A stretch of DNA of 44,163 bases from a virus. The notes under the pieces are model-generated. The model saw nothing but the letters and a program-made list of their open reading frames with translations. It was not told where the DNA came from and ran no database searches. Made by a program: the position numbers and the translations under genes. The stretch is from positions 1 to 44,163 of IMG/VR virus record IMGVR_UViG_3300037606_000121. One strand, written 5' to 3'. Every line of letters starts with the position of its first letter. The stretch's first letter is position 1. Positions 18,960 through 43,986 of the stretch are shown here, piece by piece.

Positions 18960-19685
18960 TTACCAAATATCGTATTCAACCTTCACGCGGTCCCTAATCT
19001 GAACGTCAGGACTTACGTGCACGCCGTCCCCGATCCGCACGCCGTCCCCGGTTTGCACGCGGTCCCCGATCCGCACGCCGTCCCCGATCCGCACGCCGTC
19101 CCCGATCCGCACGCGGTCCCCGATCCAAACGCGGTCCCCGATCCGCACGCGGTCCCCGATCCAAACGCGGTCCCCGATCCGCACGCGGTCCCCGATCTGG
19201 GCGTTGGCGCCGATCTGGACGCGGTCCCCGCTCCGCACGTTGTAGCCGATCCGCACGCGGTCCCCGATCCAAACGCGGTCCCCGATCCGCACGCGGTCCC
19301 CGATCTGGGCGTTGGCGCCGATCTGGACGCGGTCCCCGCTCCGCACGTTGTAGCCGATCTGTGCGTTGGTACCGATCTGGACGCGGTCCCCGATCCGCAC
19401 GTCGTCGCCGATAACTCTGCGAATCAAATCAGGAGTGCCACCCACGCTTCGCAGCACGCTCTCCACTCCGTTGCGCACGTCCGATCCTAGGTCATCATAA
19501 TCCTCAGGCGATGGACCTTGCATTGCCGACTCTTCGCCTCTGCTAGCGATCAATGTCGCCAGCCCGTGTAGGCAGCAAGCAGTCCCACAGTCCCAGACCG
19601 TTTGCTTATATTCTCGACCGTAAAGCCGATGGTCTCGCTCCGCGATGGAACATGCTTCCAGTAGATGCTTGGATGTCAATGGCAT
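18960..19685 (-). CDS. Hexapeptide-repeat (left-handed beta-helix) protein
   Basis: 241 aa. Residues 1-90 are a helical domain with CGTACCLHGLATLIASRG. From about residue 91 to the end there are about 25 consecutive hexapeptides (RIGDRV, WIGDRV, QIGANA and variants) with Ile-Gly at fixed positions, the pattern of left-handed beta-helices; this gives roughly eight coils. No acyltransferase active-site His loop is visible, so a binding or structural role is more likely. The repeat region is built of 18-bp DNA units. It shares the GGAGAATTTAAG leader. Confidence 0.8.
   Translation of the reverse strand: MPLTSKHLLEACSIAERDHRLYGREYKQTVWDCGTACCLHGLATLIASRGEESAMQGPSPEDYDDLGSDVRNGVESVLRSVGGTPDLIRRVIGDDVRIGDRVQIGTNAQIGYNVRSGDRVQIGANAQIGDRVRIGDRVWIGDRVRIGYNVRSGDRVQIGANAQIGDRVRIGDRVWIGDRVRIGDRVWIGDRVRIGDGVRIGDGVRIGDRVQTGDGVRIGDGVHVSPDVQIRDRVKVEYDIW
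19000..19420. repeat. 18-bp tandem repeats encoding hexapeptides
   Basis: About 23 units of an 18-bp motif (GGTCCCCGATCCGCACGC and variants on the plus strand). A longer block of several units is duplicated (around 19191-19260 and 19299-19362). The high identity at DNA level suggests recent expansion by slippage or recombination. Confidence 0.9.
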
Positions 19686-36625: not shown

Positions 36626-36658
36626 AAAAAAGGCAGCACGGTTGTCCGTACTGCCTTT
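36626..36658 (-). terminator. Strong rho-independent terminator after GCC array A
   Basis: Stem AAAGGCAG/CTGCCTTT (36629-36636 with 36651-36658) with an inner ACGG/CCGT, loop TTGT, followed on the minus strand by a T-run. It separates the arrays and duplicated genes from the portal-capsid genes, which must be transcribed by read-through or another promoter. Confidence 0.85.
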
Positions 36659-36659
36659 A

Positions 36660-37300
36660 CCTTGCCCCGCCCCGCCATGCCCTGCCTTGCCACGCCCCGC
36701 CTTGCCTGCCACGCCACGCCAAGCCTCGCCACGCCTCGCCTGCCAAGCCTTGCCACGCCTCGCCTCGCCGAGCCTTGCCTTGCCTGCCTCGCCTTGCCCA
36801 GCCACGCCCTGCCAAGCCGAGCCGAGCCTTGCCTGCCACGCCTCGCCTTGCCACGCCTCGCCTCGCCTTGCCACGCCTTGCCTTGCCTGCCATGCCAAGC
36901 CAGGCCGAGCCATGCCGTGCCCCGCCTTGCCTGCCATGCCAGGCCGAGCCATGCCGTGCCTTGCCGCGCCTTGCCCCGCCTTGCCTGCCAAGCCCTGCCC
37001 AGCCATGCCCTGCCTCGCCACGCCGCGCCTGCCATGCCTTGCCCAGCCTTGCCAAGCCTCGCCCCGCCGCGCCTGCCCTGCCAAGCCGCGCCCAGCCGAG
37101 CCAAGCCTAGCCTCGCCACGCCTGCCACGCCTCGCCGCGCCCCGCCCCGCCGTGCCTGCCAAGCCAAGCCAGGCCTCGCCAGGCCCAGCCTTGCCTGCCC
37201 CGCCAAGCCCAGCCATGCCACGCCCTGCCACGCCACGCCACGCCAAGCCTTGCCCTGCCTCGCCACGCCCCGCCGTGCCTTGCCTGCCTCGCCTTGCCTA
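36660..37300. repeat. GCC-pentamer array A
   Basis: About 130 units of GCC separated almost always by two bases (NNGCC). Every 6-17 units the spacer is a single T, giving GCCTGCC. Fourteen of the sixteen possible dinucleotides occur as spacer; I did not see TG or GG. The minus strand is GGCNN repeated, which also fits a G2N3 quadruplex pattern. Stop codons are almost absent, so long ORFs on both strands are spurious. Confidence 0.95.
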
Positions 37301-37836
37301 CCATGAATCAGACTTGCACAGTCTCCACCAGCGTATCGATTTGTCGCATCACGATTGCCAGTTCTTGCAGATCACGAAACCGATCTCGAAACGAAATCAG
37401 TTCCTTCAACGCCCGCCGCAAAAGATCTGCACGGGTGTCGGGATCTGCCAGCACATCCTCTGCCGTGCGATATACCCGCTTCGTTTCTTCCGTCTTTGTT
37501 GCTGGAGTGCTTATGTGATGATAGACACGCTGTGGCCTGTCAGTGCTGATGTCATCGCGAACCACAACCAGCGAACGCAAGAGAAGCCTACCGACTTCCA
37601 ATCTGTGTTGATGCGCGGCTAGAGCATCGTCCCATTCGAATTCCTTGTGCAGTGGATTACGCTTTGACTCGGCCGCCTGAACGATCTGTTCCGCGTCGAT
37701 GTCGCCTCCGTTCTTGATCCGAATCCGTTCGACCTCTTTGTGAGCCACTGCGGCGTCTGTTTTAAATCGTGAACCTGCCGACCAGTTGATGTCCATTTTG
37801 AAAACTCCTGTGAAAGTGAAATTGAAAAACCATGCC
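37301..37836 (-). repeat. 536-bp exact duplication, copy 1
   Basis: Identical to 38089-38624 (offset 788). Includes the whole 162-aa gene, its stop and its ribosome site, bounded on both sides by GCC arrays. Confidence 0.9.
37308..37796 (-). CDS. Conserved phage protein of unknown function, copy 1
   Basis: 162 aa; ATG at 37794-37796 with AGGAG upstream. MDINWSAGSRFKTDAAVAHK, HKEFEWDDALAAHQHRLEVG and LISFRDRFRDLQELAIVM match a family I know from many siphoviruses near terminase and portal, without a known function. It is helical. The upstream extension through array B is not coding. A second identical copy follows at 38096-38584. Confidence 0.75.
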   Translation of the reverse strand: MDINWSAGSRFKTDAAVAHKEVERIRIKNGGDIDAEQIVQAAESKRNPLHKEFEWDDALAAHQHRLEVGRLLLRSLVVVRDDISTDRPQRVYHHISTPATKTEETKRVYRTAEDVLADPDTRADLLRRALKELISFRDRFRDLQELAIVMRQIDTLVETVQV

Positions 37837-38088
37837 TGCCATGCCTTGCCCTGCCCAGCCAAGCCAAGCCCAGCCGCGCCTGCCATGCCATGCCATGCCA
37901 AGCCTGCCAAGCCGCGCCCCGCCCAGCCCTGCCAGGCCGTGCCATGCCTTGCCTGCCTCGCCTTGCCCAGCCAAGCCCTGCCAAGCCCCGCCCTGCCATG
38001 CCCCGCCCAGCCTCGCCCGGCCATGCCGAGCCGTGCCTGCCATGCCGCGCCTTGCCCTGCCTTGCCCGGCCCTGCCTTGCCAAGCCTG
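37831..38088. repeat. GCC-pentamer array B
   Basis: About 50 NNGCC units with occasional single-T spacers, between the two copies of the 162-aa gene. Same architecture as arrays A and C. Confidence 0.95.
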
Positions 38089-38624
38089 CCATGAATCAGA
38101 CTTGCACAGTCTCCACCAGCGTATCGATTTGTCGCATCACGATTGCCAGTTCTTGCAGATCACGAAACCGATCTCGAAACGAAATCAGTTCCTTCAACGC
38201 CCGCCGCAAAAGATCTGCACGGGTGTCGGGATCTGCCAGCACATCCTCTGCCGTGCGATATACCCGCTTCGTTTCTTCCGTCTTTGTTGCTGGAGTGCTT
38301 ATGTGATGATAGACACGCTGTGGCCTGTCAGTGCTGATGTCATCGCGAACCACAACCAGCGAACGCAAGAGAAGCCTACCGACTTCCAATCTGTGTTGAT
38401 GCGCGGCTAGAGCATCGTCCCATTCGAATTCCTTGTGCAGTGGATTACGCTTTGACTCGGCCGCCTGAACGATCTGTTCCGCGTCGATGTCGCCTCCGTT
38501 CTTGATCCGAATCCGTTCGACCTCTTTGTGAGCCACTGCGGCGTCTGTTTTAAATCGTGAACCTGCCGACCAGTTGATGTCCATTTTGAAAACTCCTGTG
38601 AAAGTGAAATTGAAAAACCATGCC
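38089..38624 (-). repeat. 536-bp exact duplication, copy 2
   Basis: Identical to 37301-37836. Sequence identity stops where the flanking arrays diverge. Confidence 0.9.
38096..38584 (-). CDS. Conserved phage protein of unknown function, copy 2
   Basis: 162 aa, identical in protein and DNA to the gene at 37308-37796. Same AGGAG ribosome site, ATG at 38582-38584. Perfect identity implies very recent duplication, gene conversion, or an assembly effect. This copy is transcribed first. Confidence 0.75.
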   Translation of the reverse strand: MDINWSAGSRFKTDAAVAHKEVERIRIKNGGDIDAEQIVQAAESKRNPLHKEFEWDDALAAHQHRLEVGRLLLRSLVVVRDDISTDRPQRVYHHISTPATKTEETKRVYRTAEDVLADPDTRADLLRRALKELISFRDRFRDLQELAIVMRQIDTLVETVQV

Positions 38625-39318
38625 GTGCCATGCCATGCCAGGCCCCGCCCTGCCGCGCCTTGCCTGCCATGCCACGCCCCGCCCAGCCCTGCCGTGCCTG
38701 CCATGCCAAGCCGCGCCCAGCCGAGCCAAGCCTAGCCTCGCCAGCCGAGCCACGCCACGCCTCGCCGCGCCTCGCCAAGCCAAGCCAGGCCCTGCCCCGC
38801 CTGCCACGCCAAGCCCGGCCATGCCAAGCCCCGCCGTGCCTGCCTCGCCCTGCCAGGCCCCGCCGAGCCACGCCACGCCTGCCCTGCCCTGCCGAGCCCT
38901 GCCCCGCCCGGCCATGCCCTGCCCGGCCTGCCAAGCCCTGCCGAGCCAAGCCCGGCCTCGCCCCGCCATGCCCTGCCCGGCCTGCCATGCCAAGCCCGGC
39001 CTTGCCGAGCCAGGCCCTGCCTCGCCCCGCCATGCCTGCCACGCCGCGCCTCGCCTCGCCACGCCTGCCAAGCCCAGCCTTGCCGAGCCCTGCCCGGCCA
39101 TGCCCTGCCCGGCCTGCCACGCCGCGCCTCGCCATGCCACGCCGCGCCACGCCTGCCATGCCTTGCCAGGCCCAGCCTTGCCCGGCCCCGCCTTGCCTGC
39201 CATGCCGCGCCCTGCCCGGCCGAGCCAGGCCCTGCCCGGCCCTGCCATGCCCTGCCCGGCCTGCCATGCCAAGCCCGGCCTTGCCCCGCCAGGCCTTGCC
39301 TCGCCCCGCCATGCCTGC
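38619..39318. repeat. GCC-pentamer array C
   Basis: About 140 NNGCC units; single T (and once a single A) spacers occur. It contains CGGCC and AGGCC units more often than array A, and shares with array A (around 37081 and 38706) a stretch of more than 30 bases, showing exchange between arrays. Confidence 0.95.
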
Positions 39319-39324
39319 CAATCA

Positions 39325-39975
39325 CTACGCCTGTTCTTCCTTCACAGCAACACTGCTGTCCAGTTCGAAACGGCCATATTCGCCACCCTTTTCAGGTCGC
39401 CACTCGCCAACGCCAACGCCGAAGCCAGCCCGGTCAAGCAAGTTACACAGGTCGCCCACTTGAAGCCAGCCCGTATCAATCACGAACGAAATCGTAACGG
39501 CCCAACGAAAGAAATACGGACGGTAGCGAAGGTCTGTCGAACCCTGACCGACGCGAACGGTATCCTCCCGAATCTCCGGTTCGTCGCAGTCCAGCTGAAT
39601 GACGCCGTTGCGGTCATTGCAGACAATGAAGACAGCTTTTTTCACCAGCGTCTTTTCAACGCCAATATCCTTGTGTGCCGCCGTGATCATTGCCGACTTG
39701 ATCGCCATCGCCGGGATGCCGTACTTGCCAGACTCAGTGCGATACGCTGCCCTTTCGCCTTCGCCTTTCGGGTCTCGAATCTCACGCGTCTTGGTCTTTT
39801 TCCCAGCGTGCTTGTCCCGCATCATCGACTTGGCTTTTTCGTCCCATGCGTGCTGAATTAGTGGGGACGTGCCGACGATTCGCAGAGTCACTTTCCGCTT
39901 TTGGATCGGCGGTAGTTTTACTGCTGATTCCAGTGGTTCTTCTGTTGTCAGTGCTTTTTCTTTTGCCTTCGCCAT
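39325..39975 (-). CDS. Hypothetical phage protein downstream of the structured leader
   Basis: 216 aa from the ATG at 39973-39975 with GGAG upstream. The longer reading includes the leader and terminator and is rejected. It begins MAKAKEKALTTEEPLESAVK; then VTLRIVGTSPLIQHAWDEKA and KYGIPAMAIKSAMITAAHKD, a pattern I know from uncharacterised phage/prophage proteins. Mixed alpha/beta. The function is unknown. Confidence 0.65.
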   Translation of the reverse strand: MAKAKEKALTTEEPLESAVKLPPIQKRKVTLRIVGTSPLIQHAWDEKAKSMMRDKHAGKKTKTREIRDPKGEGERAAYRTESGKYGIPAMAIKSAMITAAHKDIGVEKTLVKKAVFIVCNDRNGVIQLDCDEPEIREDTVRVGQGSTDLRYRPYFFRWAVTISFVIDTGWLQVGDLCNLLDRAGFGVGVGEWRPEKGGEYGRFELDSSVAVKEEQA

Positions 39976-40096: not shown

Positions 40097-40125
40097 ATAA
40101 TAGCAACGTATCTAGCCGGTGTCAA
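40097..40125 (-). promoter_or_regulatory. Consensus sigma-70 promoter
   Basis: Minus strand TTGACA (40125-40120), 17 bases, TATTAT (40102-40097). The -35 overlaps the last codons of the zinc-ribbon gene. Predicted +1 near 40090, giving a leader of about 100 nt to the terminator. Confidence 0.85.
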
Positions 40126-42873: not shown

Positions 42874-43224
42874 TCACTTCACAAAGTCTTTCATCTGTTT
42901 AACCGCCCTGAGCGCGTTCGCGTAGTCGCCTATTTCCAGCATTCTTCGGTAAAGATCTCGCGTTGCCTCAAAACACCAACCTTTAATAAGATCAGTATCT
43001 GCGCCTGCGATTGTTTCAAAATGATTCCCTGCGTTTGCCAAAACTGAGCCGACGTTTACACCGGGGTGTTTTTCGGCAAATGCTTCCATTATTTGCGCAC
43101 CGCTTGCGCCTTGGAGCATCCAATCGACCACGTCACTTGTTGCTTTGCTTACATCTCTTTCGCAAAGTGCCGCTCGATTACTCCTGCCTTTTCGGTCGCC
43201 AGTGTCGATTTCTGGTTTGTCCAT
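42874..43224 (-). CDS. Small packaging-region protein
   Basis: 116 aa. C-terminal KGWCFEATRDLYRRMLEIGD then YANALRAVKQMKDF is a helical pattern seen in proteins preceding terminases. The first 25 codons overlap the upstream gene in another frame and the start has no clear ribosome site, so the true start may be internal. Confidence 0.55.
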   Translation of the reverse strand: MDKPEIDTGDRKGRSNRAALCERDVSKATSDVVDWMLQGASGAQIMEAFAEKHPGVNVGSVLANAGNHFETIAGADTDLIKGWCFEATRDLYRRMLEIGDYANALRAVKQMKDFVK

Positions 43225-43811
43225 ATTTCATCGAATATCGTGTTGTGAAACTTGCACATGTCCGGATCGTTTCGAAGCATGAAGTTTTCGAAACGTGGAT
43301 TGAAATTCAGATTCATCGACGTGGGGCAAATTACGTCCCACTCTGCATTCTGCAGCATGAAGAATTTTGCGTGATTCTTCCCAACTCGAATTGAATCAGG
43401 GCCGCAGATGTTTCTGATTCGCTGAGCCAACGCTGGCGATCTTGTCTGAAATGTATAGTCAACCAGCCAACGTGAGCTTGTGCATTTCTGATCTTGCACA
43501 AAATCAATCACTGTTGTGACGTCAGTCGTTGCTGCTGTCCAGGTTGATACGGTTAGAGCTGCAGGTCCAGTGATTGCCAGCACGGCCTCCATGATGTCGA
43601 TAATCGAAAACTGACCCTTTGTGAATCCATAGATTTCGATCTCCTTGTTGAATCCTTCGATTGCCTCTTTGGCAGTGGCTTTTCTGCGAAGGTCTCGAAT
43701 GTCTCTTTTGTGCGTGTTTTGTGCAACTCGGATTGTTGGCGACGTGATGTCTTCCAACGGAAAAACTGGATCTGTTTTCTCAAACAGCAGGGGGTTTTGC
43801 GTCGTTTTCAC
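43149..43811 (-). CDS. Phospholipase D-like domain protein
   Basis: 220 aa from a GTG at 43809-43811 with GGAG eight bases before, chosen over upstream ATG/TTG starts. KGQFSIIDIMEAVLAITGPA, VSTWTAATTDV, RWLVDYTF, GKNHAKFFML and SMNLNFNPRFENF match a PLD-like family near phage terminases with HxK and SxN features but only one copy. Nuclease or DNA-binding activity is possible; degenerate sites are common in this family. Confidence 0.7.
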   Translation of the reverse strand: MKTTQNPLLFEKTDPVFPLEDITSPTIRVAQNTHKRDIRDLRRKATAKEAIEGFNKEIEIYGFTKGQFSIIDIMEAVLAITGPAALTVSTWTAATTDVTTVIDFVQDQKCTSSRWLVDYTFQTRSPALAQRIRNICGPDSIRVGKNHAKFFMLQNAEWDVICPTSMNLNFNPRFENFMLRNDPDMCKFHNTIFDEIWTNQKSTLATEKAGVIERHFAKEM

Positions 43812-43986
43812 GTAATCGGCTCCATTCAATAAATGCAATTGTGTTTCTGACCGTGGATTCGATTTTGTGGCTTGGCGTTTTCTTATCCTGGCTGCGCAGA
43901 AACTCAATCAACGTCGGTGTTATCGTGATTGTGAATCGAGTTTTTCGCTCACCAAATTCAGACGGTCGACCGGATTTTTTTTCCAT
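43780..43986 (-). CDS. Small basic regulator (RHH-like)
   Basis: 68 aa from the ATG at 43984-43986; an in-frame upstream ATG (44035-44037) overlaps the inverted repeat. Sequence KKSGRPSEFGERKTRFTITI then TPTLIEFLRSQ resembles ribbon-helix-helix proteins (basic arm, strand, two helices). It may bind the inverted repeat at 44029-44061 and control the packaging operon. It overlaps the next gene by 32 bp. Confidence 0.55.
   Translation of the reverse strand: MEKKSGRPSEFGERKTRFTITITPTLIEFLRSQDKKTPSHKIESTVRNTIAFIEWSRLRENDAKPPAV

What the first reader, a model, noticed from the sequence alone, without database searches (positions are those of the whole stretch)
36660..39318. Three giant NNGCC pentamer arrays interleaved with two identical gene copies
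Seen directly: about 320 GCC units with two-base spacers drawn from 14 of 16 dinucleotides, with a one-base slip every 6-17 units, in three blocks (A, B, C) that alternate with two identical 536-bp copies of a conserved phage gene. Array and gene boundaries coincide at both copies. The fixed GCC with free dinucleotides is not a simple microsatellite, because slippage would copy the spacers too; it implies selection or a mechanism acting on the GCC phase. It lies next to the terminase genes. Possible roles are a recombination site, a packaging or binding array, or an RNA element. I know of no described phage element like it.
Basis: partly seen in the sequence, partly recalled or inferred. Interest (0 to 1): 0.9.

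Follow-up and report, generated by a model that had tools for sequence, protein, structure and literature searches.

The report
Phage-encoded VIPR guide-RNA arrays
The strange GCC arrays are the guide-RNA arrays of a VIPR system, a recently described CRISPR-like RNA-guided weapon that phages use against other phages; this is a rich new example of a known kind, with an unusual duplicated accessory gene.

Summary
In detail: three arrays (326 GCC units, 2-nt spacers, 1-nt slips) flank two identical 536-bp gene segments. It is not an undescribed element. On the transcribed minus strand NNGCC reads GGCNN, the GGY/NN vrRNA repeat of VIPR (Viral Interference Programmable Repeat; PMC13142463, 2026 preprint). 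The gene just upstream of array C (39325-39975, 216 aa) is a Vipr protein: its family profile matches PDB 36pp 'SUSP1 Vipr protein' at E=2e-21, and its AlphaFold model (pLDDT 91.9) matches Cas7/Csm RAMP subunits. The duplicated gene is a conserved neighbour, probably a vap, unrelated in sequence to SUSP1 Vap1. A promoter and a terminator enclose promoter>vipr>C>vap>B>vap>A>terminator. Such arrays are common in IMG/VR (>=120 stretches), lie on the vipr strand 277:0, and their slip is T (A in RNA) in 901/944 cases, punctuating modules of mostly 7-10 NN. In cluster F mycobacteriophages whole modules are gained and lost at slip boundaries, so a module is probably one guide; the window holds 35 modules (31 with 6 or more NN). 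No credible target was found. The gene duplication is unique here among the array loci and could be an assembly artefact.

The parts
40097..40125 (-). sigma-70-like promoter, TTGACA-17-TATTAT with extended -10, about 120 bp upstream of vipr
   Evidence: consensus scan, 11 of 12 matches; 2 promoter-like sites found against 0.7 expected; function inferred
39325..39975 (-). vipr gene, 216 aa, RAMP-fold protein with G-loop GFGVGVGEWRP
   Evidence: profile hit to PDB 36pp 'SUSP1 Vipr protein' E=2e-21; AlphaFold pLDDT 91.9; Foldseek to Csm3/Cas7 RAMPs E=8e-7; PHROG 4652
38622..39319 (-). vrRNA array C, 143 GGC units, about 15 modules separated by GGCAGGC; begins right after the vipr stop codon
38096..38584 (-). 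candidate vap gene, copy 2 (upstream in transcription), 162 aa, PHROG 15946
   Evidence: homologs in 98 of 142 array loci, always on the vipr strand
37834..38090 (-). vrRNA array B, 53 GGC units, about 6 modules
37308..37796 (-). candidate vap gene, copy 1, identical to copy 2
37301..37836 (.). duplicated 536-bp segment, copy 1; the other copy is 38089-38624, 100% identical
   Evidence: only locus of 98 with two copies of this gene
38089..38624 (.). duplicated 536-bp segment, copy 2
36664..37298 (-). vrRNA array A, 130 GGC units, about 14 modules
36629..36658 (-). intrinsic terminator, 13-bp stem and T run, six bases past the end of array A
   Evidence: z = -4.5

Best explanation
The region is a phage-borne VIPR cassette. 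One transcription unit on the minus strand carries vipr, a conserved accessory gene (candidate vap) in two copies, and three vrRNA arrays. The arrays are transcribed as GGCNN repeats. One-base slips (GGC-A-GGC in the RNA) cut them into about 35 modules of typically 7-10 NN pairs, and each module most likely yields or forms one guide. Vipr protomers coat the RNA, one per GGYNN unit. The NN pairs of a module jointly recognise a DNA target with one skipped base between pairs (NNxNNx...), and the complex silences genes of competing phages or prophages. Shown here: Vipr homology and fold, GGY/NN arrays, strand linkage, punctuation, and module gain and loss in relatives. Inferred from the preprint: RNA binding, the skip rule and silencing. 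Inferred here without direct test: one module = one guide, and the vap role of the duplicated gene.
For: Profile of 70 relatives hits PDB 36pp_D 'SUSP1 Vipr protein' E=2e-21 over 183 positions. The HMM built from array loci hits SUSP1 ALH47069.1 E=1.1e-23, next to a 12-unit GGY array in SUSP1. Foldseek top hits are all Csm/type III and type VII RAMP subunits. Vipr homologs occur in 113 of 142 array loci, and most loci without one are cut at a contig end. Arrays lie on the vipr strand 277:0 and the accessory gene 89:0. The commonest altered triplet is ACC (GGU in RNA), as the GGY rule predicts. The slip is T in 901 of 944, majority T in 133 of 133 loci; module length sd 3.6 against 8.4 for random slips. 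Whole modules are gained or lost at slip boundaries between cluster F mycobacteriophages. Promoter and terminator enclose the unit. System described in PMC13142463.
Against: No credible target was found for the four window guides searched with the skip rule in IMG/VR, nor any clear excess for the skip-1 rule in 1.3 Mb of held DNA. No 3' tail like that of SUSP1 vrRNAs is seen. The duplicated gene is unrelated to SUSP1 Vap1. No expression data.
Confidence: 0.93

Rival explanations
1. The arrays are recombination hot spots that exchange or duplicate the flanked gene; guide function is secondary or absent.
For: The gene is duplicated exactly with ends in the arrays, and arrays A and C share a 7-unit run beyond shuffles.
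Against: The vipr gene co-occurs with arrays in 113 loci on the same strand 277:0; only one of 98 loci shows the gene duplication; a recombination site needs neither fixed strand nor hypervariable NN.
Confidence: 0.03
2. The arrays are a DNA site for packaging or for a structural DNA-binding protein, since they lie beside the terminase.
For: In the window they lie between terL and the portal region.
Against: In relatives the cassette sits elsewhere: near antirepressor and excisionase genes in cluster F phages, beside tail genes in Gordonia phages and Medea1, and on the other side of terL in L098.
Confidence: 0.01
3. The arrays are genuine, but the second gene copy and array B are an assembly artefact of a repeat-rich metagenomic contig.
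For: Two identical 536-bp copies, no other locus of 98 with two copies, source is an IMG/VR contig.
Against: Array B differs from A and C in its modules: no shared run above chance with C, one 5-unit match with A.
Confidence: 0.2

Closest known systems
VIPR systems (PMC13142463), SUSP1 type II
   Same: Vipr homolog (E=2e-21 to PDB 36pp), GGY/NN pentamer vrRNAs next to vipr, phage-encoded, compact locus with one accessory gene family.
   Different: Continuous arrays of dozens of modules punctuated by GGCAGGC, no visible structured tail between guides, Y almost always C, accessory gene unrelated to SUSP1 Vap1 and present twice. [quoted passage not shown] S18, not readable here), which may be this layout.
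CRISPR-Cas class 1 effectors (Cas7/Csm3)
   Same: RAMP fold with G-loop; inferred oligomer on a guide RNA.
   Different: No repeats and spacers of CRISPR type and no cas genes among those scanned; guide information is in gapped dinucleotides.
Microsatellite / VNTR
   Same: Five-base period, and single-unit indels occur between mycobacteriophages.
   Different: Spacers are hypervariable while GGC is fixed.

Membership tests
VIPR | Vipr protein, a minimal RAMP (RRM core, G-loop) | tested here: met
   36pp_D E=2e-21; SUSP1 ALH47069.1 E=1.1e-23; RAMP fold matches
VIPR | vrRNA tandem repeats of GGY alternating with hypervariable NN | tested here: met
   GGC fixed, 14 of 16 NN, GGT the commonest variant in relatives
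VIPR | arrays next to vipr in sense orientation | tested here: met
   277:0 across loci; the preprint does not state strand as a criterion
VIPR | vap accessory gene | tested here: inconclusive
   conserved partner in 98 loci but unrelated to SUSP1 Vap1; the other vap families are in the supplement, which could not be read; fold search gave only insignificant winged-helix-like matches
VIPR | encoded mostly by phages and prophages | tested here: met
   window has terminase, portal and capsid genes; >=120 viral stretches
VIPR | structured 3' tail on each vrRNA (type II) | tested here: not met
   modules are directly joined by GGCAGGC; the preprint describes tails for the SUSP1-type vrRNAs and variable array architectures elsewhere, so this bears on type, not on VIPR as such
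VIPR | target recognition by the 1-nt skip rule | tested here: inconclusive
   no convincing target
VIPR | Vipr binds vrRNA and represses DNA targets | not testable with these tools
   needs experiments

The most novel reading that the evidence does not exclude
This clade is a distinct VIPR layout: long tail-less arrays in which a single-base slip, GGC-A-GGC, is the processing or boundary signal of each guide, and in which guide repertoires evolve by whole-module gain and loss and by swapping the NN tails of duplicated modules, sometimes carrying the accessory gene along.
Probability: 0.35. Interest if true: 0.7.

Novelty: new member of a known kind. Interest (0 to 1): 0.5.

Why it matters
VIPR was described only in 2026 as a possible ancestor of CRISPR effectors. 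This locus independently recovers it from sequence alone, and the relatives show the layout in many phages, including culturable cluster F mycobacteriophages and Gordonia phages that encode it under 'hypothetical protein'. Those isolates differ by single guides, which makes questions about guide boundaries, array evolution and natural targets directly testable in a laboratory host.

Tried and rejected
Array DNA by blastn against phage records: no match (the low-complexity filter may have hidden some). The accessory gene by tblastn: no match. Reading the arrays as protein: rejected, since slips shift frame without compensation. Rfam: nothing relevant, in particular no hammerhead. PADLOC and NCBIfam: nothing for either protein. 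Target search: two scans of window guides hit one contig each, one hit four contigs of one phage, one hit none; three cluster F guides and one Bradyrhizobium guide gave hits that fail to extend over the rest of the guide or fit chance numbers; rejected as targets. Skip rules 0-3 compared on held DNA: skip 1 gives 20-50% more matches at 3-4 mismatches, which codon periodicity could also produce.

Full report
Observation. The three arrays are as described, with 130, 53 and 143 GCC units at 36664-37298, 37834-38090 and 38622-39319. The six-unit pattern matches 155 times on the plus strand and never in the reversed control. The two gene segments are identical over 536 bp, 37301-37836 and 38089-38624. 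The contig is a 44163-base IMG/VR virus record with portal, capsid and large terminase genes.

Distribution. Each holds long arrays apart from one locus that my filter did not report; the one-nt slip is T in 901 of 944 cases and the majority slip in 133 of 133 loci. The search pattern required one T slip, so its presence per locus is not independent evidence, but its dominance among all slips is. The T rule and the pentamer phase are therefore properties of a widespread element.

Identification. A literature search led to PMC13142463, which describes VIPR: a RAMP protein, Vipr, with vrRNAs of GGY/NN repeats that recognise DNA by a one-base skip rule, mainly in phages. On the minus strand our repeat reads GGCNN. 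The commonest altered triplet in relatives is ACC, which is GGU in RNA, as a GGY rule predicts.

The protein. The HMM built from them hits SUSP1 protein ALH47069.1 at 1.1e-23, beside a 12-unit GGY array. The alignment profile hits PDB 36pp_D, named SUSP1 Vipr protein, at 2e-21. The AlphaFold model (pLDDT 91.9) matches type III and type VII CRISPR RAMP subunits. Membership in VIPR rests on these tests.

Anatomy. An 11/12 promoter at 40125-40097 and a strong terminator at 36658-36629 on the minus strand enclose vipr, array C, accessory gene, array B, accessory gene, array A. Across relatives, arrays lie on the vipr strand 277 to 0 and the accessory gene 89 to 0. The commonest orders are vipr-accessory-array and vipr-array-accessory. 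The cassette position varies: L098, whose TerL is 51% identical to the window's, has it on the other side of terL, and cluster F phages carry it beside antirepressor and excisionase genes. It behaves as a mobile cassette.

The accessory gene. Its family (PHROG 15946) is found in 98 array loci. The model is confident (pLDDT 93.7) but has no significant PDB match; weak matches include winged-helix proteins. It is not detectably related to SUSP1 Vap1. Calling it a vap is an inference from its constant association. The window is the only locus with two copies.

The slip. Of 431 clean modules, 252 have 7-10 NN; the standard deviation is 3.6 against 8.4 for randomly placed slips. Among 15 cluster F mycobacteriophages, Donkeykong carries two more modules than Brocalys, and ByChance lacks one that Mattes has, all exactly at GGCA boundaries; smaller differences are single pentamer gains or losses and single NN changes. 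In window array C four modules begin CG AG AT and then diverge, and two modules differ at only two NN. I infer that a module is one guide and that arrays diversify by duplication, slippage and substitution. The preprint mentions staggered arrays with overlapping vrRNAs, whose details I could not read, so I do not claim a new architecture.

Targets. Four window guides, three cluster F guides and one Bradyrhizobium guide were searched with the one-base skip rule. All hits fit chance or fail to extend over the rest of the guide. The one-base skip rule was therefore not confirmed for this clade, and the natural targets of this phage remain unknown.

Verdict. A well-supported new member of the VIPR kind. 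The mechanism beyond homology is inferred from the preprint. The gene duplication needs long-read confirmation.

Noticed in passing
window 19019-19412 (ORF 18960-19685, -): 22 copies of an 18-bp repeat encode a hexapeptide-repeat (left-handed beta-helix-like) protein, related to LpxD/acetyltransferase repeats.
   Followed up: partly
L198, L203-L208 and other cluster F mycobacteriophages: Annotated vipr genes there start about 150 bp upstream, inside the guide array (747 bp against 600 bp in Quico and Florinda), so start sites are probably misannotated.
   Followed up: no
window 38622-39319: Four modules of array C share the first three NN (CG AG AT) and differ after that; two others are near-identical. 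This may be guide diversification against variants of one target.
   Followed up: partly
L071 4936-5183: Several modules are variants of one guide (GA TC GA GA GG GG GG AC), again suggesting repeated targeting of one site.
   Followed up: no
L155 7181-7781: The Dokdonella vipr homolog is split over two frames, so it may be decayed or a sequencing error.
   Followed up: no
L090 12352-13549: Largest array seen, 232 units, near the contig end and without vipr in the held stretch.
   Followed up: no
window 43149-43907 (-): Endonuclease-like protein, PHROG 16945, E=3.6e-42, upstream of the terminase genes.
   Followed up: no
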